Shown: positions 211 to 13,990 of the stretch, piece after piece
Layout of the letters: each line of letters begins with the position of its first letter
How positions within the stretch are numbered: the stretch's first letter is position 1
Origin: Bacillota bacterium
Lineage (GTDB): Bacteria; Bacillota; Clostridia; Acetivibrionales; JAMNXU01
Assembly: GCA_023623175.1 (NCBI GenBank)
Contig: JAMNXU010000031.1
Coordinates: forward strand, 1 to 64,000
Length of the DNA: 64,000 bases
Direction of reading: 5' to 3'
Made by a program: the position numbers and the translations under genes
The notes under the pieces: model-generated
Database searches by the model: none
Told to the model about the DNA's origin: nothing
The model's input: the letters and a program-made list of their open reading frames with translations, nothing else

Positions 211-239
211 TTGACACAAGGAATGATATAAAATACATT
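211..239 (+). promoter_or_regulatory. Predicted sigma-A promoter upstream of the fibre locus
   Basis: TTGACA at 211-216 is a perfect -35, followed by a 17-bp spacer and TACATT at 234-239 as a -10. Transcription would start near 246, leaving a leader of about 300 nt before the DUF5305 gene. That leader contains an intrinsic terminator at 360-386, so the promoter drives either an attenuated mRNA leader or a short RNA. Confidence 0.55.
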
Positions 240-359
240 TAGAGGTATTGTTTGGAAAACAGTTACTGCGGATGTTCCAATTTTATTTGAAAAATTTAAG
301 AAAATTATATAGGCAAAAGAAAAAAAAGTAATTTTCAGCAAAGAGAATGTACTTTGGAC

Positions 360-386
360 GGGCTGCAAAAAAGCAGCTCTTTTTTG
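360..386 (+). terminator. Intrinsic terminator inside the leader of the fibre locus
   Basis: GGGCTGC (360-366), a six-A loop, and GCAGCTC (373-379) form a 7-bp stem followed directly by six T. It lies between the promoter at 211-239 and the first gene at 553. It therefore either ends a short transcript of about 140 nt or acts as an attenuator. I do not recognise a known aptamer in the 247-359 leader. Confidence 0.65.
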
Positions 387-552: not shown

Positions 553-1638
553 ATGAACAAATGGAAGAAGTTAAAAGTAAGGTTTTGGGCTCTTTCCAAA
601 ATAGCCATGATAATCATTATATTGATTTGGCTTGCTGTTGCAGCGTTAACTGCTCACGCGTTTACAACAAAGCAGTTTATAGAACAGAAGATAAATAAAA
701 ATGTAATTATTCAAAGTACGGTTTTTGATTACAAAACCAAGGCATTGCCTTACGGTGTTGTCGGAGTTGAGGGAGTGATATTCCCAAAAACGCAGAATGT
801 CGTGGATGTATATGTCAAAACTGCGATAACTGCTGACAAGCCAGTCACTGTCAAAGGCAATTATTCAATATTGCTTAAATTAGTAGCTGAAGGTTTATGG
901 GAGCGTACCACGACACTCAAGGGCAGACAGAATTTTAACATGAAAGGAGAAAGTGTAGAAGTTATAAATCAAAAGGTTTCTATTGATCTAGGAAAAATTT
1001 ACAGCGACATTGAGACAATTTCCAACAAGGCCATAGGGCACATGCCGGCCAAATTTTTATTGCATGTTATCCCGGTTATTGAGGGGGATATAACTTTTGA
1101 AAACAGAAAGATAAATCTTGAATCAAACACGGCCATGATGTTTGAACTGTCTGAAAGCCAGATGATGTTAAGCGGAGAAAATGAATATTTCTGGCGGACC
1201 CCTGTTGATGAGATTAAAGTAGTGGAATATAAACTAAACTTGTTTAATCTGATGGTACCCGTTCCGGTTTACAGGTATGTTTCGCTTTCTGTTTTTCTGA
1301 TTTATTCTGCTTTTGTATTACTGGTTTTGATATCAAGAAAACAGATAGAAATTGAACATATGACCGAGGATGACAAGATAGAAAAGAGGTACAGGAACAG
1401 GCTGGTTTCCGTCCGACAGCCTATAGAATTTAAGGATAAAACGCTCATTCCCCTGGACAGCATGAAAGAGCTGGTAAGAATATCTGATGAGCAGGACAGG
1501 GGAATATTAAAATATCGCGATGATATGGAGGAAAAGACATATTACTGTGTAATTGAAGATGATTATATCTATATATATACCGTTAATGAAGATAACGGAA
1601 AAAAGAAGGGACTGTACAACTACATGTACGATTTTTAA
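553..1638 (+). CDS. DUF5305-type membrane protein of a SipW/TasA-like locus
   Basis: A 361-residue protein with an N-terminal membrane segment (about 16-35), an extracellular beta-rich region of about 200 residues, a second membrane segment (about 240-261) and a charged cytosolic tail of about 100 residues. This layout and the central region fit DUF5305 proteins, which in Clostridia and archaea often sit beside SipW-like signal peptidases, as here. The enzymatic role is unknown; a scaffold or sensor for export or assembly of surface fibres is an inference. The ATG has a GGAG about 10 nt upstream. The DUF assignment comes from sequence character and neighbourhood, not from a search. Confidence 0.7.
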   Translation: MNKWKKLKVRFWALSKIAMIIIILIWLAVAALTAHAFTTKQFIEQKINKNVIIQSTVFDYKTKALPYGVVGVEGVIFPKTQNVVDVYVKTAITADKPVTVKGNYSILLKLVAEGLWERTTTLKGRQNFNMKGESVEVINQKVSIDLGKIYSDIETISNKAIGHMPAKFLLHVIPVIEGDITFENRKINLESNTAMMFELSESQMMLSGENEYFWRTPVDEIKVVEYKLNLFNLMVPVPVYRYVSLSVFLIYSAFVLLVLISRKQIEIEHMTEDDKIEKRYRNRLVSVRQPIEFKDKTLIPLDSMKELVRISDEQDRGILKYRDDMEEKTYYCVIEDDYIYIYTVNEDNGKKKGLYNYMYDF

Positions 1639-1809
1639 GTTTGAACTCTCCTTCTGTTATTACTCCAAAGTATACCATGAGGCTAACCCGGAGTGTAAGA
1701 TTAATATTACACTTCCAAAATCTGAAAAATAGCCCGAAGGTCAATGCATTGATATCCAGGATTGGAGATAATTTACTTGTAAAAACAAAATCATGAAGGA
1801 GGGTTTTAA

Positions 1810-2439
1810 ATGAAAAAAGGTAAAATTTTTGTAGTGCTGACCCTTTTGATAGTGGCAGCAGTAATGGCTTCGATAGGAACCGGAGCTATTGACGTATTCA
1901 AGGCAGAACGTACGTCCAGCATGAAAGTTGCCAGCGATGCAGAAGGTTTTATTGGAATTTCGTCCAGTTCGCCCTATGCGAAGGTTAACAAGGAAGGAGC
2001 CATTGAGTTCGACTTCTCTACGGCTCTCGCAAAAGGTTTTAATGCTCAGTCTTTAACAGAGGTCCACAACGTATTTACTGTTACCAACCAGAGCGCACAG
2101 ACACTTTATGTATGGCTCGAAGCTGAAGGTTGGGATTCCTGGCATAATGCAGGATTAAGATACAGGATCCAGGATACCAACGGCGAAGTCACAAACGTGG
2201 ATGCCTGGTATGGAAATACCAAGCCCGAGGGCAAGGATTTGCTCATGTCCACTTCCTGGAACTTCAAGGACGGCGTAGGTAAGATGGCATATGTAAAACT
2301 CGATCCCGGTGAATATTTCACTGCAAAAGTAATTGTCAACACCAAGCTGTCCAATGGATACGGAAGAGCCGGCAAGGATTGGAGCCATACCGTTATATTC
2401 AAGGCAAACAAGGAAGCTCCGAAGAGACCTGCCCAATAA
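1810..2439 (+). CDS. TasA/DUF1102-like exported fibre protein
   Basis: A 209-residue protein with a basic N-terminus, a hydrophobic segment (residues 6-24) and a GTGAIDVF motif just after it. That motif resembles the processing region of TasA-type substrates of SipW signal peptidases. The mature part starts with VASDAEGFIGI, reminiscent of DUF1102 and archaeal TasA-like pilin proteins, and is a predicted beta-sandwich with Thr/Asn-rich strands. No LPXTG anchor is present. A strong Shine-Dalgarno site (AAGGAGGG) precedes the ATG. It is probably the main structural subunit of an extracellular fibre, secreted through the signal peptidase encoded next door. A strong terminator follows, which would make this gene more highly expressed than the peptidase. 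Confidence 0.72.
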   Translation: MKKGKIFVVLTLLIVAAVMASIGTGAIDVFKAERTSSMKVASDAEGFIGISSSSPYAKVNKEGAIEFDFSTALAKGFNAQSLTEVHNVFTVTNQSAQTLYVWLEAEGWDSWHNAGLRYRIQDTNGEVTNVDAWYGNTKPEGKDLLMSTSWNFKDGVGKMAYVKLDPGEYFTAKVIVNTKLSNGYGRAGKDWSHTVIFKANKEAPKRPAQ

Positions 2440-2468
2440 ACGAAAACTTTAAGTCAGTAAACTTCATG

Positions 2469-2512
2469 GTGGAACTTTAGCAAAATCTAAAGTTCCACTA
2501 TGTATTTATTTT
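2469..2512 (+). terminator. Strong hairpin/terminator between fibre subunit and signal peptidase
   Basis: A perfect 12-bp stem (2469-2480 with 2487-2498, GTGGAACTTTAG and its complement) has a 6-nt loop and is followed by a T-rich stretch (TATGTATTTATTTTTT). It probably reduces read-through from the abundant fibre subunit gene into sipW. Confidence 0.75.
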
Positions 2513-2674
2513 TTAAATTACCGGCAGCTTCGAGTCATTAACAGGATGCCTGCAAACGATAATTAGCCTGTAGAATCTTTGTTTAAATAAATATGCCTTG
2601 GAACAAAAAGACTTAAGTCAAATAAACCTGATAAATATAAAACTAGAAAAAAACTTGTTAAACGGAATAAAAAG

Positions 2675-3799
2675 ATGAAAACGGTAAACAGGTTTTTAAA
2701 AGCGATGATATATGTCATTATAACCGGTTTATTAATAAATCTCGCAATTAACGTCATATACAGAGATAATGAATCGAGACCAATAAGCCTGTGGTACGTT
2801 TATTCAGAAAGTATGGAACCAACCATAATGACCAATGACGGGTTTATTCTGGTTTCATCGAAAACATATAAGGTAGGAGATATCATAACATTTAAACCCA
2901 GGGTTCTTGAACAGCCTTTTGTAACTCACAGAATAATAGATATAACGAAGGATGGAAAATTCATAACAAAGGGCGACAATAATGTAATGACAGATCAGCA
3001 GGGCGGTGAACCCCTGATACAGCAAAGCCAGGTGATAGGCAAGGTGCTGAACATATGGGGCAAGCCAGTTATTATACCCAGGCTGGATTTGATAGATAAA
3101 AAATTGCAGGATAGTATTTCAAAACTAAATATATTTATGCTCATATCCGTATTGATTCTTGTATATGCCCTTGGATTTGCGCTGGACATGTTATTTAACA
3201 GGGAGCTTTCCAGGAAAAACAAAAAGGACAGAATTCGCCTGCTTGATATTGCGCCCTTTTTTGATCCCGTGTTTTTCCTGATTTGCCTGATAATTATCGC
3301 CAATGCCCTGTTTATAGGGCAGACTATGAAAAGCTGGAAAGCGGAAGAGATTGCCTATGTTGTAGTTAGCACGAAAGGACTGCCTAATCCATTACCGGGA
3401 GAGAAGTTCGAAAGGACACGAAGCCTTGAAAATTTGTCCTTTATTCCATACTATACGGTTTTGGAGGCAAAAGACGCCAATATGATTATAAAACCGGGAT
3501 TTTTCACGATGAATCCGAAAGAAAAAACCGATTATGTTGTGTCTATTACTGCTCCTGAGAAAACAGGATACTACGTGCAAAAGATTTATATAAAAACATA
3601 TCCCCGGCTGATTTCTCAGAAATTAATGGAGTACCTGTATTCAATAAACCCTTATATACCGCTGATAATTGTTTTTTCTCCCGGAATAATTCTTGTCGTG
3701 GCGTTGTATTTCCTGTGGGCGAGAAGATGGGAAAAAGGCAGAAAATTGGTCATGGACTGGTTAATACCTCTTCGTGTTAAATTGAAGAAATTTGTATAA
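2675..3799 (+). CDS. SipW-like (ER/archaeal-type) signal peptidase I
   Basis: A 374-residue S26B-type signal peptidase. The serine box is SESMEPT with the nucleophile at S46. The general base region reads FVTHRI with H85 where bacterial LepB has lysine, and KGDNN (D101) completes the third box. These are the marks of the SipW/archaeal/eukaryotic-ER class. After the catalytic core come membrane segments at about 152-175 and 195-215, an extra extracellular domain of about 115 residues, and a last membrane segment near 332-352. The protein is thus much longer than the roughly 190-residue Bacillus SipW. It presumably processes the two TasA-like neighbours. Confidence 0.88.
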   Translation: MKTVNRFLKAMIYVIITGLLINLAINVIYRDNESRPISLWYVYSESMEPTIMTNDGFILVSSKTYKVGDIITFKPRVLEQPFVTHRIIDITKDGKFITKGDNNVMTDQQGGEPLIQQSQVIGKVLNIWGKPVIIPRLDLIDKKLQDSISKLNIFMLISVLILVYALGFALDMLFNRELSRKNKKDRIRLLDIAPFFDPVFFLICLIIIANALFIGQTMKSWKAEEIAYVVVSTKGLPNPLPGEKFERTRSLENLSFIPYYTVLEAKDANMIIKPGFFTMNPKEKTDYVVSITAPEKTGYYVQKIYIKTYPRLISQKLMEYLYSINPYIPLIIVFSPGIILVVALYFLWARRWEKGRKLVMDWLIPLRVKLKKFV

Positions 3800-3845
3800 A
3801 AATAGAAAATTACGATGATAAAAAAACAAGAGCAGGTCACATATA

Positions 3846-3873
3846 TTTACAAAAAAATTAAGAAAACTATTAT
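3846..3873 (+). promoter_or_regulatory. Possible promoter of the riboswitch transcript
   Basis: TTTACA (3846-3851), a 16-bp spacer and TATTAT (3868-3873) would start RNA near 3880, just before the c-di-GMP aptamer. The elements are weak matches, and other AT-rich hexamers nearby could serve instead. Confidence 0.4.
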
Positions 3874-3889
3874 ATACTTTAATAGAATT

Positions 3890-3957
3890 TGGGCGCGATG
3901 AAGCATATATCATAATCTGGGCACCTGATATATGTGGAGCTAGTGGTGCAACCGACC
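3890..3957 (+). ncRNA. Class II cyclic-di-GMP riboswitch aptamer
   Basis: The segment contains CTGGGCACCTGA, then GGAGCTAGTGGTGC, then AACCGACC, in the order and spacing of the Clostridium acetobutylicum c-di-GMP-II aptamer. CATATATC (3904-3911) pairs with GATATATG (3927-3934), and GGCAC pairs with GGTGC as in the known fold. The 3-prime CCGACC, conserved in the aptamer, is also the 5-prime arm of the following terminator. Ligand binding should therefore compete with termination, which predicts an ON switch (inference). It controls the TasA-like gene at 4097 and perhaps the two-component genes after it. Confidence 0.93.
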
Positions 3958-3989
3958 AATGAGATTATGTTCTTATTGGTCGTTTTTTT
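3953..3989 (+). terminator. Terminator (expression platform) of the c-di-GMP-II riboswitch
   Basis: CGACCAATGAG (3953-3963) and CTTATTGGTCG (3972-3982) form an 11-bp stem with one wobble and an 8-nt loop, followed by seven T. Its 5-prime arm overlaps the last bases of the aptamer, so aptamer and terminator are mutually exclusive. Confidence 0.9.
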
Positions 3990-4096
3990 AGGTTTTTCCT
4001 ATAAGTATAATTATTCCAGTATGTGTGTATAATCCATATAAGATCAGACCTATGCGTGTATTTAATGGTTTGATCGGAAAGAGGGAAAGGGCCGGG

Positions 4097-4975
4097 ATGA
4101 AAATAAGAGGGAATAGAAGAAAAAGGCATAAAAGAACGCTATCATTACATTATTTATTAGCATTAATGATGCTTATATCAGTATTGATTTCGACTACCCA
4201 GAGCAGCTTCGGAATAGATGTCCTGCAGGCAGGCAGGGGAATAAATGCTGTAATTGCCGCTAACGACAGCGCTTTTGTTGGAATAATGCATGACGATGTA
4301 TATAAAGTTGTTTATTCTGAAGAAAAAAGTAATAACTTTATATCCATGCATGTTAAAAACAACATGCCAGAACAGGCGACATTTTCTATATCCTTATCGG
4401 GTCAGACGGTCAAAGATTATTTACCGGGCAGCTTTACGCTGAGCCCCGGCGAAGTTCAGTTCATTGAAATTCAGTTGCTGGACCTGGAAGAAGCATTTGA
4501 AAAATCCATAGAAGGGATTTCAGATATTTTGGGTATTGTTTCTGCCCAGTCCGGCCAGGGAAGCGTAAATGCTCAGTTCTCGTTTGCAGTGGAAGTAGAT
4601 TTGCCGGAAAAGAAAGAGACTCGTGAAGAGTTGCAGGAAGGCGAAAACAAAGAGGAAGCGGCAGAAAAGAATGCAATGGAAAAGGCTGCAGGAAAAGACG
4701 CTACTGAAAAGGATGGACCGAAACTGGATGCGCCTGGTAAGGATATGTCTGAAAAGCAAGCAATTGAAAAGAATGTGATGAAAGTAGACACAACTGAAAA
4801 GAAAACGACTGAAAATGATGATAACGAGAAAGGAACGATCACAGAAGATTTAAATAAAAAGGAAGTCTCAGCAGAAAATGCATCCGGAAAGAAAGTTGTG
4901 CAGGAAAATTCTGTACGGGAAGACGGGGGCAATGAAAAAACAAAGGAAGCGGATGCTGAAGGCACCGATACCTGA
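4097..4975 (+). CDS. Second TasA-like exported protein with Lys/Glu-rich tail
   Basis: The ATG at 4097 has a GAGGGAAAGGG ribosome site; an upstream in-frame GTG at 4025 lacks one. The 292-residue product has a very basic N-terminus and a hydrophobic segment (about 18-37). The mature start ANDSAFVGI resembles the DUF1102/TasA-like start of the gene at 1810. It continues with a beta-rich domain to about residue 168, then a low-complexity tail of about 120 residues built from EK/KD/TEK units. There is no cell-wall sorting motif. It is probably a fibre-associated or anchoring subunit that is exported and processed by the SipW-like peptidase and made only when c-di-GMP is high. The function of the tail is unknown; ionic binding to wall polymers or matrix is a guess. 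Confidence 0.68.
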   Translation: MKIRGNRRKRHKRTLSLHYLLALMMLISVLISTTQSSFGIDVLQAGRGINAVIAANDSAFVGIMHDDVYKVVYSEEKSNNFISMHVKNNMPEQATFSISLSGQTVKDYLPGSFTLSPGEVQFIEIQLLDLEEAFEKSIEGISDILGIVSAQSGQGSVNAQFSFAVEVDLPEKKETREELQEGENKEEAAEKNAMEKAAGKDATEKDGPKLDAPGKDMSEKQAIEKNVMKVDTTEKKTTENDDNEKGTITEDLNKKEVSAENASGKKVVQENSVREDGGNEKTKEADAEGTDT

Positions 4976-5022
4976 AACACGACCCAAAAAGAGAAAGATG
5001 CCAAAGAATAAGAAGGGGTTTT

Positions 5023-6729
5023 ATGTTCAAGGTATTAATCAATAAAATAGCAAACAATAATTCTAGAGAAATCAGGGTTATATACCTGTACAGATATCTT
5101 TCGCTGGTTTTTACTTCCTTATTCTACTTATTTGACAACCTTACCAAATATTTTCTTTATAAATTGGGAGTAATCATCATATTGTTCATAACTTCAAGAA
5201 TATTGACAAATTTATACTCCAGGTACTCGAACAATTCAAAGGCAATCAAGAGTCTTGTGCTGAGCGAGACCTTCGGAATTTCGATGCTGTTGTTGCCCAC
5301 GGGCGGACTGAACAGCCCCTTCATTTGGTACGCGATGAATCCCGTGCTGGTTTCCGCGAGCTTTTTGACGGGTTTGTTCTGCTGGTTCAATCTTGGTTTC
5401 TATCTTGCGATTTCGGCAAGCGTGTCATATTTCATTTTTAACACCGGGAACAAATCGGCAGTTGAAATATTGTCCGATAATTCTCATCTTATTTTAATAT
5501 TCATCCTGATGACTTTGGGAGTGCAGCTCCTGTTGAAGCTGGCCCATGAGCTCTGCAACGAAAGGAACAGGCTGAGGGAAAAAAACGACCAGTTGGCCGA
5601 GGCAAACGAAAAGATAAAAGAATCCATTGAACATATAATGTCGCTGTACCAGGCGGTTGAAACGTTTACGGCCCAGGACAGCAGGGAAAAACTGATGAAT
5701 ACCATAATTTTTTACGCAAGGGAACTGACGAAGTCAAAATCTTCATTTTTCAGACAGGCAGGCTTAAACAATTCGAATGGAATCATTACGTGCGGAGATA
5801 TTTCTCCCGAAGACCAACGGCTGATAGGGGAGGAACTGGACGGATTAGCCGAATTGCAGGAAGAAGCTGATAAGAATATATTGCATGTAAGAATACGGAA
5901 CAGGACATTTGCCATAAGCGTTGTAAAATCGGCATCGAGGCTTTTCGGAATCCTCGGGGTTGAAACGGAAGAATTCCATGAAAATGATTACCTGTTTGAA
6001 AAGCTGTTCAGCTTCCTGACAGAGTTAAGCGCCGTAATACTGGAAAGATTGTACCTGGAGGAATTCAGCCAGAAGCTGGTTATAACGGAGGAACAGAACC
6101 GTATAGCGAACGAAATGCACGACAGTGTTTCCCAGAGGCTATTCAGTATTTCATGCGCAATACATACGCTGGTAGCTAAGTATTCGAAGATGTCCGAAGC
6201 AGAATTGCGCGATCAGTTGATAAGGATCATGAAAACATCGAACATGGCCATGGAGGAACTGCGATCGGCCATATACAAGCTCAGTTCCAGGAAACAGGGA
6301 AAAAGGGCATTTCAGACGGATATCAGGGACTACCTCGAAAGTATTGCGAAATTAAACAATGTTAATGTCAGGTTTAAATGCTCCGGGGACGAAGATCTTC
6401 TTACGGGTGCGTTGAAGAAGGCGCTGTACAGGATTATAGCGGAATCGACAGGCAACTCCATAAAACATGGCAAATGCAGCGAAATTGTTGTTGATCTTAA
6501 TATTAATGATATCTGTACTGAATTAACTGTAAAGGATGACGGAAAAGGTTTTATTGTTGAAAATGCGGCAAAAAGAAAAGGCCTTGGCATTGACAATATA
6601 AAGAGGCTTGTAAATTCCTTCAACGGGAGTCTGAATATTGACAGCGAACCTGAAAAGGGAACATGCATCAGGGTAAGTATTCCCAACAGGAAACTGGTTA
6701 CTCTTGATGAGGGAGGTTTGGTGGTATGA
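5023..6729 (+). CDS. NarL/DegS-type membrane sensor histidine kinase
   Basis: A 568-residue kinase. The first 180 residues carry several membrane segments and no large extracellular domain. A coiled coil (about 180-215) and a GAF-like region (about 220-340) follow, then a HisKA_3 domain with NEMHDSVSQRLF (phospho-accepting H366) and a HATPase domain (N-box near N478, DDGKGF at 505-510, GLGIDNI). The small transmembrane input suggests it senses a membrane or intracellular cue. It starts 47 nt after the riboswitch-controlled gene with no terminator visible between them, so it may share that transcript. It overlaps the response regulator by 4 nt and presumably phosphorylates it. Confidence 0.93.
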   Translation: MFKVLINKIANNNSREIRVIYLYRYLSLVFTSLFYLFDNLTKYFLYKLGVIIILFITSRILTNLYSRYSNNSKAIKSLVLSETFGISMLLLPTGGLNSPFIWYAMNPVLVSASFLTGLFCWFNLGFYLAISASVSYFIFNTGNKSAVEILSDNSHLILIFILMTLGVQLLLKLAHELCNERNRLREKNDQLAEANEKIKESIEHIMSLYQAVETFTAQDSREKLMNTIIFYARELTKSKSSFFRQAGLNNSNGIITCGDISPEDQRLIGEELDGLAELQEEADKNILHVRIRNRTFAISVVKSASRLFGILGVETEEFHENDYLFEKLFSFLTELSAVILERLYLEEFSQKLVITEEQNRIANEMHDSVSQRLFSISCAIHTLVAKYSKMSEAELRDQLIRIMKTSNMAMEELRSAIYKLSSRKQGKRAFQTDIRDYLESIAKLNNVNVRFKCSGDEDLLTGALKKALYRIIAESTGNSIKHGKCSEIVVDLNINDICTELTVKDDGKGFIVENAAKRKGLGIDNIKRLVNSFNGSLNIDSEPEKGTCIRVSIPNRKLVTLDEGGLVV

Positions 6730-7337
6730 AGATAGGGATAATTGATGATCATCCCCTGGTAAGGCAGGGACTTATCTCGGTTCTGTCAATATATGAAGAT
6801 TTTGAAGTTGTGGGAGAAGCGACGAACTGCCGCGAAGGCATAGCCATGATAATGGAAAAAAGGCCGGAGATCGCGCTTATTGATCTTAAACTCGGAAATG
6901 ATTGCGGCTTTGATATTATAAGAGAAGTGAAGGATAAAACCGAATCAAGATTTGTAATACTTACTTCATCGGCTGAACAGGGCGATTTTCTGCAGGCGGA
7001 ATTACTGGATGTCGACGGATATATCCTTAAGGAAGCTCTTCCCGAGGAGCTTATATATGGACTGAGACTGATTTATAAAGGAAGAAAATACTATGATCCG
7101 GGCCTTGTGAGATTACAGATGAAGAGGGACGACGACCCTCTCGAGCTGCTTACCCAAAGAGAAAAAGAGGTTTTGCTGGCCCTCGGCGAGGGACTCAGCA
7201 ACAGGGAAATTTCCGAGAGGCTTTATGTGACTGAACACACGGTAAAGAAACATGTAAGCCAGATCCTCTCAAAGCTGAATCTTGCCGACAGAACCCATGC
7301 CGTCATATTTGCCTACAACAGGGGGCTTATTGGATAA
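6726..7337 (+). CDS. LuxR/NarL-family response regulator
   Basis: A 203-residue regulator with a receiver domain (acidic pocket DDHP at 6-9, phospho-acceptor D53 in LIDLKL, the usual T/S and K positions in LTSSA and ILKEAL) and a LuxR-type helix-turn-helix from about 138 (LLTQREKEVL, then a recognition helix near EHTVKKHV). The ATG overlaps the kinase stop codon (ATGA), so the pair is translationally coupled. Likely targets are the neighbouring fibre genes or the lipoprotein, but no operator repeat is evident. Confidence 0.94.
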   Translation: MKIGIIDDHPLVRQGLISVLSIYEDFEVVGEATNCREGIAMIMEKRPEIALIDLKLGNDCGFDIIREVKDKTESRFVILTSSAEQGDFLQAELLDVDGYILKEALPEELIYGLRLIYKGRKYYDPGLVRLQMKRDDDPLELLTQREKEVLLALGEGLSNREISERLYVTEHTVKKHVSQILSKLNLADRTHAVIFAYNRGLIG

Positions 7338-7590: not shown

Positions 7591-7620
7591 AAAAACAGGT
7601 GATATCCACCTGTTTTTATT
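7591..7620 (+). terminator. Terminator after the two-component operon
   Basis: AAAAACAGGTG (7591-7601) and CACCTGTTTTT (7607-7617) form an 11-bp stem with a 5-nt loop and an A-tract/T-tract, so it could work in both directions. Confidence 0.85.
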
Positions 7621-7775
7621 TTGGTTCAAAGTTAATCATATGAAGATAAAAAAATAAAGTTTAAGTTCAGGAGAAAACCGTGTTTTTTTGCCATATTTCC
7701 TGTTTTATAATATTCCCTACGGGCAAAAACCCGGCTAATTTACAACACAGGACAAAACAAACAGGGAGTGATAAC

Positions 7776-9125
7776 ATGACATTTAAAAAAACGGCCGTTA
7801 TTCTGCTTAGCCTGTCTGTATTTCTATCGGGATGCTCATCCGGGATATCCAACAAAGGGAGCAAGAAAACTGAAAAAGGCGAAGAAATTGCAGATATCCA
7901 GGAGACTGTTGAACCAGAAAACCAGGAACCTGTTGGTACAGAAATCCGGGAACCTGTTGAAACAGACGGCCTGGAGCCCGGCGAAAAAACAGGTGAGAGC
8001 TCCGGGACGCAAAATGTACCAGCGGACGTGCCGGCTCCCGGTGACAATTCAAAAGAAGGTAAAACATCGGGAATAAAAGATGCGGATAATGGAACCAAAG
8101 GCACAAAGACAGGGGACAGCAATTCCGAAAAAAGCCCGACGGACCAGGCAGGTAAAAAGAATACGGACAACGCGGCAAAAGAAAGCAGCAATGTCGAGAG
8201 CTCCAAAAGCAACAATGATGGCCTGGTGAAGCTTATACCCATGGCAAAGCTTCCCGACCTTAACATGGATCCGCAGGAACCCTTTACGCTGGAGGAGAAG
8301 GCGGGAATGGGAACCTGCATGCTCGTTCCCGTTTATCATAAAACTCTCAGGTACCAGATCCGGGAGTTCACGAGAAATCCATCGAGGCTTGTTATCGATA
8401 TCGGCAACACGAGCGATAAAACAATTGTTATTACTGACGAAAACATGTACTTCTCCATCCTTGACATGGAAGGCAATAACATTGCCGGGTCGAAGGTCCA
8501 GGGAGCCCCGGTGTCCATAGCCCCGGGGGAAATTAAAAGGGTTGTGGTGACGGCGCAAAACCCGGATGCCGGGATCGTGTTTTTTGAATTTGAACAGGAG
8601 ACTATTCCCAGCATATCCGTTCCCATCTTCCGCCCCTTCCCGAATGAAGCTGCGGACGTAACGGACACCACTCCATATAATAAGCATGCGTATATCACTA
8701 ATGATGATGAAGGAAATCCCTTTATTGTTTCCCAGCACCCCATGCAGGTGGTGGGAAACGGAAAAGCGAAAATGGTCGGGTGCGGTCTGATGATCCTGGA
8801 AAATGAGAAAATCGGCCCCGTGGAAAAGCAGGATGGATTCCTCGCTCTGGTCAAGGTCAGGATTGCCAATACTTCCAACGAGGTCATGACAATCAACAGG
8901 CTGACTTCCCATGGAGGAGGGCAAATTGTAGATCTGACTGAAAAAGATCTGGCCGTTTTGGGCGACAAGGCCCTGCCTTTCACTATCAAGCCCCATTCCA
9001 TCGTGGAAGGCTGGATTCCTTTCAAGGTCAGGGAAGCACGCGACGGTCACGGTATTGTCTTTTACACTAATCTGGGAGGATTCATCCTGGGGTATCTTCA
9101 AACCTATCCGGTTTTTGAGCGATGA
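7776..9125 (+). CDS. Lipoprotein of unknown function with acidic linker
   Basis: The ATG at 7776 follows CAGGGAG; an open frame extends upstream but has no ribosome site. The 449-residue protein has a type-II signal peptide with lipobox LSGC (C20). A low-complexity linker of about 130 residues (residues 25-155, rich in Glu, Gly, Lys and Ser with EPVET/EPVGT units) follows, then two beta-rich domains that look like DUF4352 or other immunoglobulin-like folds, with phrases such as SIAPGEIKRVVV and TIKPHSIVEGWIPF. It is surface-anchored. The function is unknown; its position suggests a link to the envelope or fibre locus upstream. Confidence 0.75.
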   Translation: MTFKKTAVILLSLSVFLSGCSSGISNKGSKKTEKGEEIADIQETVEPENQEPVGTEIREPVETDGLEPGEKTGESSGTQNVPADVPAPGDNSKEGKTSGIKDADNGTKGTKTGDSNSEKSPTDQAGKKNTDNAAKESSNVESSKSNNDGLVKLIPMAKLPDLNMDPQEPFTLEEKAGMGTCMLVPVYHKTLRYQIREFTRNPSRLVIDIGNTSDKTIVITDENMYFSILDMEGNNIAGSKVQGAPVSIAPGEIKRVVVTAQNPDAGIVFFEFEQETIPSISVPIFRPFPNEAADVTDTTPYNKHAYITNDDEGNPFIVSQHPMQVVGNGKAKMVGCGLMILENEKIGPVEKQDGFLALVKVRIANTSNEVMTINRLTSHGGGQIVDLTEKDLAVLGDKALPFTIKPHSIVEGWIPFKVREARDGHGIVFYTNLGGFILGYLQTYPVFER

Positions 9126-9784: not shown

Positions 9785-12700
9785 ATGGCAAAGAAAAGGT
9801 TTCTCAGCGTGCTGCTCGTGTTGCTCATCATTGCTGGCTGTTTGAATGCGTCCCCGGTGTTTTCTTCGGAAGAAAAGCCAGAAGAACTGACAGAATTCAC
9901 TGAAGATGAACAGGGCGAGATTGTGATTGAAGAAACAGGCGATTTGCCGTCAGGGGAGGTGACGGAGGATGGCCAAGCTGCGCAGGAACCGGCCCAGGAG
10001 TCCGGAGTGGAATCCCGGGCTGAGGGTGCATCAATGCAGGAACAGTCACTGCAGGGGCAAACCACGCTTATTGTGGACTTCGGCGCAACAGAATCCCAGA
10101 ACGTGTACGGCCTTGGTTTTGATGTCCCGGTGCTGTCGGATTACTGTGACTATGTACCCTACGGACCGGGCGGGACCGCAACGGTCAGGGGAGCGGGCGG
10201 CGGCAACGGACAGGGCGTCAGAAGGTCGAGCGGAACCTACACATTTAATGAGGGAGATATCATTATCGTAACCTGGTATAACTTCAGCGACAGCGTCAGG
10301 ACGTTCAGACCCGCAGTGAAATTTTACTCCGGCACCGGTCAGACCTACTACAACATGTCCCAGGTCAGGATCCCGGCTTTCGGTACTGCAATTTCCACGT
10401 ATACGGTCGGTCCGAACGTTGCCGTGAACAGCGACATGGTTTACGTGACATCTAATTTTGAAAATGCCGAGGGAGAGCTTGTCTGTGACAAAATAGAAGT
10501 GGCACCTCCGGGAACCATTATTCCTGAAAACCTTCCAACGGTTTTGCTGTATGCCCTGGATGAGTGGGCTTCGGAACCGGGTTCGCTGCCGCGTGATACG
10601 GACATAGCCAGGTTCAGGATTAAAAGAAGCGGCCCGAGCACATCGGACATTGTTGTCAATTACAGCATTTCAGGAACTGCAACAAATGGAATTGATTACG
10701 AGGCAATAGGCAATTCAGTAATAATACCTGCAGGCGGGGATACCCAGTATGTGTATGTAGATATTGTACCCATAAACGATTCCGAGAGCGAGCCTGATGA
10801 AACGGTAACCATTACGCTGCAAGGCGGCACGGGTTATGTGGTGCCTCCATACCCCATTCCTCCAAAGAAGACTGATTCCTACGACGATGCAAATCCTACG
10901 GGCGCAGGAACGTCTTATACCGTAACAATCAGGGATGATGATACGACGCCCACGGTCAGAATGGAAGCAACGGACACCGTGGCGAAGGAGCCGATTAACT
11001 CGGGCAGGCTGACCATAATCCGTACCGGAAGCACGATCAATCCGCTGACGGTCAACTATTCGATTTCAGGTACGGCTGTAAACGGTGTTGACTATGAAAC
11101 CCTCGGAACAAGCATAACCATTCCTTCGGGAAGCGACAGGGCCGTTGTAAGAATAACGCCCATTGACGATGACGAATTTGAAAGTACCGAAACCGTTACT
11201 GTTACAATCATGCCGGGAACAGGCTACAATGTGCATCCTGCGGAAAACAGCGCAACCGTTACCATTGAGGATAATGACATACCGGGCAGGGTGGTGCGCC
11301 AGGTAGGACCGACGAGGCAGTATAAAACGATCCAGGCTGCCGTCAATGCCGCCAATCCCGGAGACATAATCGAAATAGATGCAGGAGTGTATTATGAGGC
11401 CGAGGGAGAAACAAGGGTGACAAAGAACAACCTCATTATCCGCGGCGTAGGCGGCATTGTGAGAATTGAAAACAATGACCAGAACATTCCCGACAGCAAG
11501 GGAATATTCTCCATCACCAGTGATAATGTAATAGTTGAAAATATTGCATTTATCCGCGGTGAGTCCAAGTATGTGACAAACGGAGCGGGCATAAGGTACT
11601 ACGGAAACGGTGACCTTGTTGTCAGGAACTGCTGGTTTGTTGACTGTGATACAGCTCTCCTGACGGGCAGTTCCAACAAGGACAACGAAACGCTTGTGGA
11701 ATACTGCGAATTCTTCAGCGGAAGCAGCCAGACGGGGCTTGAACACAATATATACATTTCCAACCATACAAGATGCTTCACATTGCGCTATTCCTACTCC
11801 CATGCCTGCCATGAAGGCCATCTTGTAAAGAGCCGGGCTCTCGAGAACTACATCCTGTACAACCGCCTGACGGAGGAAACGGAGAGCTCGAGTTACAATA
11901 TAGATATTCCCCAGGGTGGAACGAGCTACGTGATAGGCAACATACTCCAGCAAAGAGCGGCTACCGGTGTAAATTACCACATGCTGATGTACGCCGCTGA
12001 AAGTGGAAGATTTGCCAATCCCGACATGCACCTGTATGTCATAAACAACACGTTTGTGAATGAAATGAATGACGGCGTGTTTGTGTGCAACCGCGCGTAC
12101 CAGCCCGCCGTTGTTATCAATAACATTTTTAAGGGACCCGGGCTGGCCATAGACGGAAATGCTGTGGCAAGCCATAATATCACCGATCCCGTGGATCCGA
12201 TGCTGTTTGACGTAGCGGGAATGGATTACCGCCTCATGCCTTCGTCTCCGGCGATAGACGCAGGTATTGATCCGGGCATTTCGGCCTTCGGCTATCCATT
12301 AAAACCCACGGAGCATTACGTGGACTACATGAGCAGGGAGCCTCGCCCGGTGTACGGTTCGGCCATAGATATAGGGGCTTATGAATATACGGGTACGCCT
12401 CCGACGCCGAGACCGACGCCGACGCCCACGCCGACTCCTACACCAACACCTACGCCTACACCTACGCCTACACCTACTCCTACACCGACACCCGTACCGA
12501 CAGTATCACCCGGAGCTGTTCCTGAGCTGTTGTCAGAGAATATGCCTGCAATGGCCAGTCAGTCGCAGGGAGGATTCCCGCCGTCAAATGCTAATGACGG
12601 CAATCCTGCAACAAGATGGGCTTCGGGAACGAGCGCCTATCCCCAGTGGTGGGCCGTGGATCTTGGATGGATAAAGACAATTACACAGGTTACTATAGAC

Positions 12701-13990
12701 TGGTATTCGTCCCACGCGATCCAGTACAGGATTGAAGTGAGCGATGACGGAGTCAACTATACCACCGTTCTCGACAGGACGGACAACACATCGGCAGGAG
12801 TAACCACCGACTATCTGCTGGCAGTGGGAAGGTATGTAAGGATTTACATGGTGAGCTCTTCGGGCGCATGGGCGTCGATGGACGAGTGCAAGGTATACGG
12901 TTACCATGGCCTGCTGCCGTCGCCGTGGCCGACGTTTACACCCACACCTTCATCTACTCCTTCTGCGTCGCCAACACCAACACCCACGCCGACTCTCACA
13001 CCAACACCAACGCCAACAGCGACTCCGACACCTACGCCTACACCGACTCCGACACCGTCGTCTTCGCCGACACCCGTACCGACAGTATCGCCGGGAGTAG
13101 AACCGGAACTGCTGTCGGAGAACATGCCCGCAAGCGCAAGCCGTTCCCAGGGAGGTTTTCCGCCGCAGAACGCCAACGACGGCAACCCGTCAACGCGCTG
13201 GGCTTCCGGAACTGCGACTTACCCGCAATGGTGGGCCGTGGACCTCGGAGGTATCAAGACTATTACGAAGGTTGTCATTGACTGGACATCGGCCTATGCG
13301 ATCCAGTACAGGATTGAAGTGAGTGACGACGGGGTCAATTATACCACCGCACTCGACAGGACGGACAACACATCGGCGGGAATAACCACCGATGAGCTGC
13401 TGGCAGTGGGAAGGTATGTAAGGATTTACATGGTAAGCTCTTCGGGTGCATGGGCGTCGATTGACGAATGCAAGGTATACGGTTACCATGGACTGCTGCC
13501 GTCGCCCGGACCGACGCCAACACCCACACCCATGCCTACACCTTCTGAGTCTCCAACACCCACACCCACGCCGACTCCGACACCGCCTCCTGGTGAACCG
13601 GTATTGATATCCCTGAACAAACCGGCTTCTGCCAGCCAGTCCCAGGGAGGATTCCCACCGAAGAACGCCAATGACGGAAGCAATTCTACACGGTGGGCCG
13701 CAGGCGTATCCACTTTCCCGCAGTGGTGGGCCGTGGACCTGGAGTCTGTGTACACCATAAACCAGGTGACAATCCGCTGGTATTCGTCCCATGCGACCCA
13801 TTACCTGATACAGGTAAGCGATGACGGTGTAAATTATACGACGGTCGTGGACAAATCGGACAACACGCAAACCGGTACCACCACGGACACGTTCAGCGCG
13901 ACGGGAAGGTACGTGAGGATCTATATGCCGAGCTCGGCGGGAGCCTGGGCGTCGATTGTGGAGTGCAGCGTCTATACGTTTTATCCATGA
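9785..13990 (+). CDS. Secreted modular protein: Calx-beta, beta-helix, three discoidin domains
   Basis: A 1401-residue exported protein with AGGAGAGG before the ATG. In order: signal peptide (1-27); acidic linker; a beta-sandwich (about 92-245); two Calx-beta repeats (about 252-390 and 393-499, with YSISGTA.NG.DYE and [18 protein letters not shown]); a right-handed parallel beta-helix (about 502-869, starting [15 protein letters not shown]); then three F5/8-type C (discoidin/CBM32-like) domains (about 913-1039, 1106-1235, 1272-1401). The discoidin domains are separated by Thr-Pro linkers and each carries ANDG...TRWA and QWWAVDLG. The beta-helix resembles polysaccharide lyases and related glycan-binding proteins. 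There is no dockerin or SLH domain. It is probably a secreted polysaccharide-active protein; activity and substrate cannot be read from the sequence. Confidence 0.82.
12399..13593 (+). repeat. Thr-Pro linker minisatellites and triplicated domain DNA
   Basis: Three ACN-CCN repeat tracts (about 12399-12500, 12935-13090 and 13513-13593) encode TPTPTP linkers. The first two discoidin domains between them are also highly similar at the DNA level, for example the shared stretch around 12715-12900 and 13300-13500. This indicates recent internal duplication and a site prone to recombination. Confidence 0.8.

What the first reader, a model, noticed from the sequence alone, without database searches (positions are those of the whole stretch)
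553..7337. c-di-GMP-controlled SipW/TasA-like surface-fibre locus with its own two-component system
A DUF5305 membrane protein, two TasA/DUF1102-like exported proteins, a Ser-His SipW-type signal peptidase with extra domains, and a NarL-type kinase/regulator pair are adjacent and co-oriented. A class-II c-di-GMP riboswitch lies directly before the second fibre gene. TasA-SipW fibres and archaeal bundling pili are known families. The combination with direct second-messenger RNA control and a dedicated two-component pair is, as far as I know, not well described.
Basis: partly seen in the sequence, partly recalled or inferred. Interest (0 to 1): 0.85.

Follow-up and report, generated by a model that had tools for sequence, protein, structure and literature searches.

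The report
Second-messenger RNA switch controlling surface fibres
A bacterium of the class Clostridia carries a set of genes that most likely builds a thin protein fibre on the cell surface, and an RNA switch that should sense the signal molecule c-di-GMP turns on part of it (a small fibre partner plus its own sensor-regulator pair); the same wiring recurs in several distant clostridial families, which makes it easy to test.

Summary
Window 553-7337 carries six co-oriented genes: DUF5305, TasA1, long archaeal-type SipW, TasA2, histidine kinase and response regulator. A bona fide c-di-GMP-II riboswitch sits at 3882-3966 (69.1 bits; the only one in the genome). Its 3' arm is also the 5' arm of an intrinsic terminator (3953-3982), so it should be an ON switch. 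It directly controls the second unit only: TasA2-kinase-regulator.

The TasA1 model best matches archaeal bundling pili (Z 9.7), then Tafi pili, archaeal threads and TasA. TasA2 has a TasA-like N-terminus, a generic Ig-like core and a disordered charged tail, like the TapA/CapP assembly helpers.

The gene order and switch are conserved in three other families of the order; two carry a second switch before the kinase. Across 391 genomes of the class the strong hits of this kinase family sit beside SipW/TasA-like/DUF5305 genes. Six loci have c-di-GMP-II switches and one a class-I switch. Other c-di-GMP-II switches precede ordinary SipW-camelysin operons.

Both halves have precedents: C. difficile cmrRST and C. 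perfringens BsaRS. Their union on TasA-type fibre loci appears undescribed in the papers I could search. New variant of a known kind. Function is inferred.

The parts
553..1638 (+). DUF5305 membrane protein (361 aa); in archaea and Peptococcaceae also found beside long SipW and TasA-like genes
   Evidence: Pfam PF17231 58.3 bits, cut-off 29; same place in L025, L026, L027 at 60-65% identity
1658..1676 (+). TATTACTCCAAAGTATACC, candidate operator of the response regulator upstream of TasA1 (weak)
   Evidence: conserved in the four genomes of the order; single exact copy in the genome; no binding evidence
1810..2439 (+). TasA1: probable main fibre subunit (209 aa), SipW-type signal peptide ending ...GTGA|IDVF
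   Evidence: model pLDDT 68, pTM 0.73; best PDB match archaeal bundling pilus 7ueg Z 9.7, then Tafi pilus 9p0a 7.8, thread 7pnb 7.2, TasA 8aur 5.7; sequence profile hit to 9p0a E 1.9e-9
2465..2502 (+). terminator-like hairpin after TasA1 (16 pairs, T-rich tail), likely limiting read-through into SipW
2675..3799 (+). Long archaeal/ER-type signal peptidase I (SipW-like, 374 aa) with an extra C-terminal membrane and exported region
   Evidence: TIGR02228 80 bits, cut-off 51.85; Ser46/His85 invariant
3846..3873 (+). promoter-like TTTACA-16-TATTAT ending 8 nt before the aptamer
   Evidence: 10 of 12 matches; promoter hits in the region overall are not above chance, only its place is telling
3882..3966 (+). 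c-di-GMP-II riboswitch aptamer
   Evidence: RF01786 69.1 bits, gathering 53.5
3953..3989 (+). expression platform: intrinsic terminator (stem 3953-3982 plus T7) whose 5' arm is the 3' strand of aptamer P1; mutually exclusive, hence predicted ON switch
4097..4975 (+). TasA2: exported small subunit or assembly partner (292 aa from ATG 4097); Ig-like core and charged low-complexity tail
   Evidence: N-terminal match to TasA1 profile E 2.6e-7 over 35 columns; core matches Ig/PapD-like domains generically; model poor, pLDDT 48.7
5023..6729 (+). Histidine kinase (568 aa): membrane sensor region, HisKA_3 and HATPase_c
   Evidence: family search in the class; strong hits flanked by SipW/TasA-like/DUF5305 genes
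6726..7337 (+). NarL/LuxR-type response regulator (203 aa), overlapping the kinase gene by 4 nt
   Evidence: Response_reg and GerE; 81-89% identical in relatives
7591..7617 (+). bidirectional terminator-like hairpin that closes the locus

Best explanation
This is a TasA-superfamily donor-strand fibre locus of archaeal type with a two-step control. Step 1 (inferred from RNA architecture): when c-di-GMP is high, the class-II aptamer folds, its P1 helix takes up the 5' arm of the terminator, and transcription from the promoter just upstream reads through into TasA2, kinase and regulator. Step 2 (inferred): TasA2 is exported, cleaved by the long SipW and helps start, anchor or chaperone the fibre, as TapA or CapP do. 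The kinase responds to an envelope or matrix signal and its NarL-type partner activates DUF5305, TasA1 and SipW. TasA1 polymerises by donor-strand exchange. The circuit would act as an AND-type gate: fibre output needs both c-di-GMP, to make the regulator, and the kinase's signal, to activate it. Shown here: the genes, the riboswitch, the overlapping terminator, conservation of order, and the recurrent linkage of c-di-GMP riboswitches with this kinase family and with SipW-TasA loci. Inferred: ligand, ON direction, target promoter and fibre formation.
For: Riboswitch and terminator: RF01786 69.1 bits. The terminator begins 14 nt inside the aptamer, dG -17.0; the same overlap of 11 to 23 nt is found in 16 of 18 associated riboswitches, counting the class-I one. 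The genome has eight GGDEF genes. Conserved locus: DUF5305-TasA1-SipW-[switch]-TasA2-[switch]-kinase-regulator in G008 and G010; G007 has lost most of TasA2 and its first switch but kept the one before the kinase. Linkage beyond the order: c-di-GMP-II switches head TasA2-like-DUF5305-kinase-regulator in G306 and G397 and kinase-regulator in G362, G136 and G382; G221 has a class-I switch (80 bits) before kinase-regulator-SipW-camelysin. Expected by chance about 0.007 loci; 6 class-II seen among 22 kinase hits (rough). The label changes at least three times on the kinase tree. Other class-II switches precede SipW-camelysin operons in G405, G185, G096 and G260, with G022 below the gathering score. 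Fibre fold. TasA2-kinase linkage also without riboswitch in Lederbergia, G281, G346 and G092. Published analogues: BsaRS activates the sipW-bsaA promoter (PMC7395162); cmrRST lies behind an ON class-II switch (PMC6837544); TapA/CapP chaperone roles (PMC10151520, PMC13082335).
Against: No expression, binding or microscopy data. The TasA1 model is of moderate confidence (pLDDT 68) and Z 9.7 is only modestly above unrelated folds. TasA2's model is poor. The candidate operator upstream of TasA1 is only a conserved string in an intergenic region that is conserved as a whole. Several relatives of the same locus have no riboswitch (Lederbergia, G281, G346, G263, G332, G092), so c-di-GMP control is not obligatory.
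Confidence: 0.7

Rival explanations
1. TasA2 is not an assembly partner but the kinase's own exported sensor or ligand (a matrix-status reporter). c-di-GMP then switches on a sensory unit that watches fibre assembly, and TasA1 is controlled independently.
For: TasA2 is directly before the kinase, or before DUF5305-kinase, in most loci with or without riboswitch, while TasA1-SipW wander. PapD-like Ig domains are common ligand-binding modules.
Against: TasA2 shares TasA1's N-terminal maturation and donor-strand region, expected of a fibre partner. G152 has a TasA2-like gene under a riboswitch with no kinase in the stretch read.
Confidence: 0.25
2. The switch is an OFF switch or a decayed relic, so c-di-GMP does not raise expression.
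For: One relative (G007) carries a decayed first copy and the window lacks the second copy seen in G008 and G010.
Against: All consensus core nucleotides are kept. Terminator and P1 compete for the same strand in the intact copies of this locus. Class-II switches of C. difficile at pilA1 and cmrRST are ON (PMC8470499, PMC6837544).
Confidence: 0.08
3. The locus is a general secretion or envelope-stress module, with TasA1/TasA2 being soluble or wall-bound exported proteins and no fibre.
For: No fibre has been seen. HMMs for TasA and camelysin do not match TasA1, and the TafE match is far below its cut-off (23 of 155 bits).
Against: Fold and profile matches to filament-forming pilins rank first, and a dedicated SipW-type peptidase is adjacent.
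Confidence: 0.15

Closest known systems
C. perfringens sipW-bsaABCRSD (PMC7395162)
   Same: SipW, TasA-like filament protein and a cognate two-component system that activates the sipW promoter
   Different: No c-di-GMP riboswitch is described there; the operon order differs; no DUF5305 or long SipW is named in the passages I read
C. difficile cmrRST with riboswitch Cdi-2-2 (PMC6837544, PMC6200980)
   Same: A class-II c-di-GMP ON riboswitch controls a two-component system
   Different: CmrRST has two response regulators and a phase-variable switch, and is not described as part of a SipW/TasA locus
Archaeal bundling pili (7ueg), Tafi pili (9p0a) and Sulfolobus threads (7pnb)
   Same: Predicted fold of TasA1. 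Archaeal and Peptococcaceae loci also combine TasA-like genes with a long SipW, some with a DUF5305-type gene
   Different: No two-component pair or c-di-GMP riboswitch was seen in the archaeal loci read here
B. subtilis tapA-sipW-tasA and B. cereus sipW-tasA/calY/capP
   Same: Main subunit, helper with Ig-like or beta-rich domain and disordered tail, dedicated SipW peptidase (PMC10151520, PMC13082335)
   Different: Controlled by SinR; short SipW; no riboswitch and no adjacent kinase/regulator described
c-di-GMP-II riboswitches before surface proteins and type IV pili
   Same: Aptamer and terminator platform; such targets also seen here in G034, G040, G029
   Different: Targets there are large adhesins and pilins, not TasA-type fibres

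Membership tests
c-di-GMP-II riboswitch (RF01786) | covariance-model score at or above the gathering score | tested here: met
   69.1 against 53.5 bits, full length 1-84
c-di-GMP-II riboswitch (RF01786) | expression platform overlapping the aptamer | tested here: met
   terminator 3953-3982 shares the P1 3' strand
c-di-GMP-II riboswitch (RF01786) | binds c-di-GMP | not testable with these tools
   needs in-line probing or transcription assay
TasA / archaeal bundling pilin superfamily (TasA1) | shared fold with solved fibre subunits | tested here: met
   7ueg Z 9.7, 130 residues, rmsd 3.7; 9p0a Z 7.8; 7pnb Z 7.2; 8aur Z 5.7; moderate model
TasA / archaeal bundling pilin superfamily (TasA1) | donor-strand filament | not testable with these tools
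   needs electron microscopy
TasA / camelysin proper (PF12389, NF046066) | curated HMM cut-off | tested here: not met
   no match for TasA1 or TasA2
DUF1102 (PF06510) | curated HMM cut-off | tested here: not met
   window proteins do not match; the Lederbergia homologue does at 25.0 against 22.2
Archaeal/ER-type signal peptidase I (TIGR02228) | curated HMM cut-off and catalytic Ser/His | tested here: met
   80 against 51.85 bits; Ser46 and His85 invariant
Bacillus SipW equivalog (NF046067) | curated HMM cut-off | tested here: not met
   48.5 against 190 bits
DUF5305 | curated HMM cut-off | tested here: met
   58.3 against 29 bits
NarL-type two-component system | HisKA_3 plus HATPase_c; receiver plus GerE domain | tested here: met
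TapA/CapP-like assembly helper (TasA2) | SipW-processed Ig-like or beta domain with disordered tail | tested here: inconclusive
   poor model; Ig-like core and charged tail seen; function untested

The most novel reading that the evidence does not exclude
Direct c-di-GMP riboswitch control of TasA-type fibre loci, either through a dedicated kinase/regulator family or at SipW-camelysin operons, is a recurrent, repeatedly acquired regulatory theme of Clostridia that uses both known classes of c-di-GMP riboswitch; in its fullest form it is an AND gate of second messenger and envelope signal.
Probability: 0.5. Interest if true: 0.72.

Novelty: new variant of a known kind. Interest (0 to 1): 0.58.

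Why it matters
In Gram-negative bacteria c-di-GMP is the classical switch for matrix fibres (own knowledge). In Bacillus, TasA fibres are under SinR control. These loci would put TasA-type fibres of Clostridia directly under c-di-GMP through RNA, and they tie archaeal-type fibre modules to a bacterial second messenger. The kinase family also becomes a marker for finding further fibre loci, and the riboswitch gives a direct, cheap test.

Tried and rejected
- DUF1102/TasA membership by HMM for the window proteins: not met.
- Sequence search of TasA2 against PDB: nothing. Its structure model was too poor to assign a specific fold; Foldseek and VIA list generic Ig/PapD-like domains. TapA did not appear among the listed rows, which is no evidence against it.
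- Search for a regulator box: the string at 1658-1676 is unique in the genome. At three mismatches the two further hits are no more than the reversed-pattern control, so no regulon could be defined. A palindrome CTACTTAAGTAG before TasA1 in Lederbergia and G281 is absent from the window.
- Promoter scan: 24 sites against 20.1 expected, so only the position of the one before the aptamer is of use.
- Literature: searches for TasA with c-di-GMP and riboswitch, SipW with cyclic di-GMP, and riboswitch with SipW/camelysin/DUF5305/BsaA/TasA gave no listed paper that describes this link. The library lacks most subscription papers, so prior description elsewhere cannot be excluded.
- TafE/TafA model names found no explanatory paper; PDB 9p0a 'Tafi pilus' of Natrinema probably explains them.
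- The first HMM set for the neighbourhood survey held one out-of-frame kinase row and one bad SipW row; both were dropped and the survey repeated with the same outcome.
Full report
Observation. Window 553-7337 holds six co-oriented genes: DUF5305 (553-1638), exported TasA1 (1810-2439), a long signal peptidase (2675-3799), exported TasA2 (best start ATG 4097, end 4975), a HisKA_3 kinase (5023-6729) and a NarL-type regulator (6726-7337). Rfam places a c-di-GMP-II riboswitch at 3882-3966 with 69.1 bits against a gathering score of 53.5. It is the only one in the genome. The genome has eight GGDEF genes, so c-di-GMP is probably made. The window starts at the first base of contig C2, so nothing further upstream can be read.

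The RNA. The aptamer keeps all core consensus stretches. The terminator stem 3953-3982, followed by seven T, begins 14 nt inside the aptamer and uses the 3' strand of P1. Free RNA prefers the terminator: predicted -33.7 kcal/mol against -19.2 with P1 forced, without ligand or pseudoknot terms. Ligand binding would favour P1 and read-through. This is the ON arrangement known for class-II switches of C. difficile at pilA1 (PMC8470499) and cmrRST (PMC6837544). A promoter-like element ends 8 nt before the aptamer, so TasA2-kinase-regulator is probably a separate unit; fewer than 50 nt and no terminator separate TasA2 from the kinase.

The order. In 60 relatives the TasA1 gene was found in three other genomes, each of a different family. 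All three have DUF5305-TasA1-SipW-TasA2-kinase-regulator, downstream of what looks like rpsI. G008 and G010 carry two class-II switches, one before TasA2 and one before the kinase. G007 has a truncated TasA2 with a decayed switch before it and an intact switch before the kinase. The window keeps only the first. In all four, then, the kinase-regulator pair stands behind an intact switch.

Beyond the order. Without riboswitch, the same parts occur in Lederbergia panacisoli (TasA2-like-DUF5305-kinase-regulator-TasA1-SipW) and in G281 and G346 (TasA2-kinase-regulator-TasA1-SipW). Archaeal and Peptococcaceae loci show TasA-like genes with long SipW, some with a DUF5305-like gene. A profile search of the kinase family over 391 genomes of the class gave 22 matches in 19 genomes. 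The strong hits lie beside SipW, TasA-like or DUF5305 genes; a few sit on contigs too short to judge. Class-II switches head this unit in the window, G306, G397, G362, G136 and G382, and a class-I switch does so in G221. A rough binomial estimate expects 0.007 class-II cases; relatedness makes it optimistic, but the cases span five families and the kinase tree requires at least three changes of the label. Independently, class-II switches precede SipW-camelysin operons in G405, G185, G096 and G260, and below the gathering score in G022 and G092. In 16 of the 18 associated switches examined, counting the class-I one, the terminator overlaps the aptamer by 11 to 23 nt.

The proteins. TasA1's model (pLDDT 68, pTM 0.73) matches first the bundling pilus of Pyrobaculum (Z 9.7), then the Natrinema Tafi pilus (7.8) and the Sulfolobus thread (7.2), with B. 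subtilis TasA lower (5.7). A profile of TasA1 homologues also finds the Tafi pilin by sequence (E 1.9e-9). Membership in TasA or camelysin HMM families is not met. TasA2 shares the N-terminal maturation region of TasA1 (E 2.6e-7 over 35 columns). It has an Ig-like core of generic type and a charged low-complexity tail; a related first-gene-of-the-unit family in other loci aligns to its core (E 6e-6). This resembles TapA (Ig domain, flexible C-terminus; PMC10151520) and CapP (beta-rich N-domain, disordered anchoring C-domain; PMC13082335), but the model is too poor to decide. The peptidase is archaeal/ER type with invariant Ser46 and His85.

Mechanism. Most likely c-di-GMP opens transcription of TasA2 and the kinase/regulator pair, and the regulator then activates the fibre and peptidase genes when the kinase is stimulated. 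The second step leans on C. perfringens, where BsaR binds the sipW promoter and BsaRS is required (PMC7395162). A conserved string before TasA1 (1658-1676) may be the operator, but the evidence is weak.

Novelty. A class-II riboswitch before a two-component system is known (cmrRST), a two-component system for a SipW operon is known (BsaRS), and TasA-type fibres are known. Their union on an archaeal-type TasA locus, and its recurrence with two riboswitch classes, was not found in the papers searched. I rate it a new variant of a known kind.

Noticed in passing
G000:C15:36000-44900 (locus L200 4186-12812), outside the window: The same genome has a second module of this kind: PilT-like gene, kinase paralogue, 400-aa SipW-like protein, DUF5305 (84.8 bits), several TasA-like exported proteins and a regulator on the other strand; no riboswitch above the gathering score.
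   Followed up: partly
L196 985-1070 and 1210-4096 (G221): Class-I c-di-GMP riboswitch (80 bits) directly before the same kinase family, regulator and SipW: a different riboswitch class in the same place.
   Followed up: partly
L141 69-4163 (G345): c-di-GMP-II switch followed by regulator, large kinase and regulator, resembling cmrRST of C. difficile.
   Followed up: no
G362:C1:1601258-1601427 (L087): Two c-di-GMP-II riboswitches in tandem, 2 nt apart, before a large exported protein.
   Followed up: no
window 9785-13990: 1401-aa secreted protein with two Calx-beta domains, a right-handed beta-helix-like middle and three F5/8 type C domains joined by PT-rich linkers.
   Followed up: no
window 7680-9125: 481-aa lipoprotein-like protein with a long charged linker and no Pfam match, right after the locus; absent from this place in the three relatives.
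   Followed up: partly
window 211-379: A good promoter match (TTGACA-17-TACATT) followed by a terminator-like hairpin (360-379) upstream of DUF5305; could be a leader or the end of the preceding operon cut by the contig edge.
   Followed up: no
L134 (G096): Two c-di-GMP-II switches 6 kb apart, one before a 1589-aa adhesin-like protein, the next before SipW-camelysin.
   Followed up: partly
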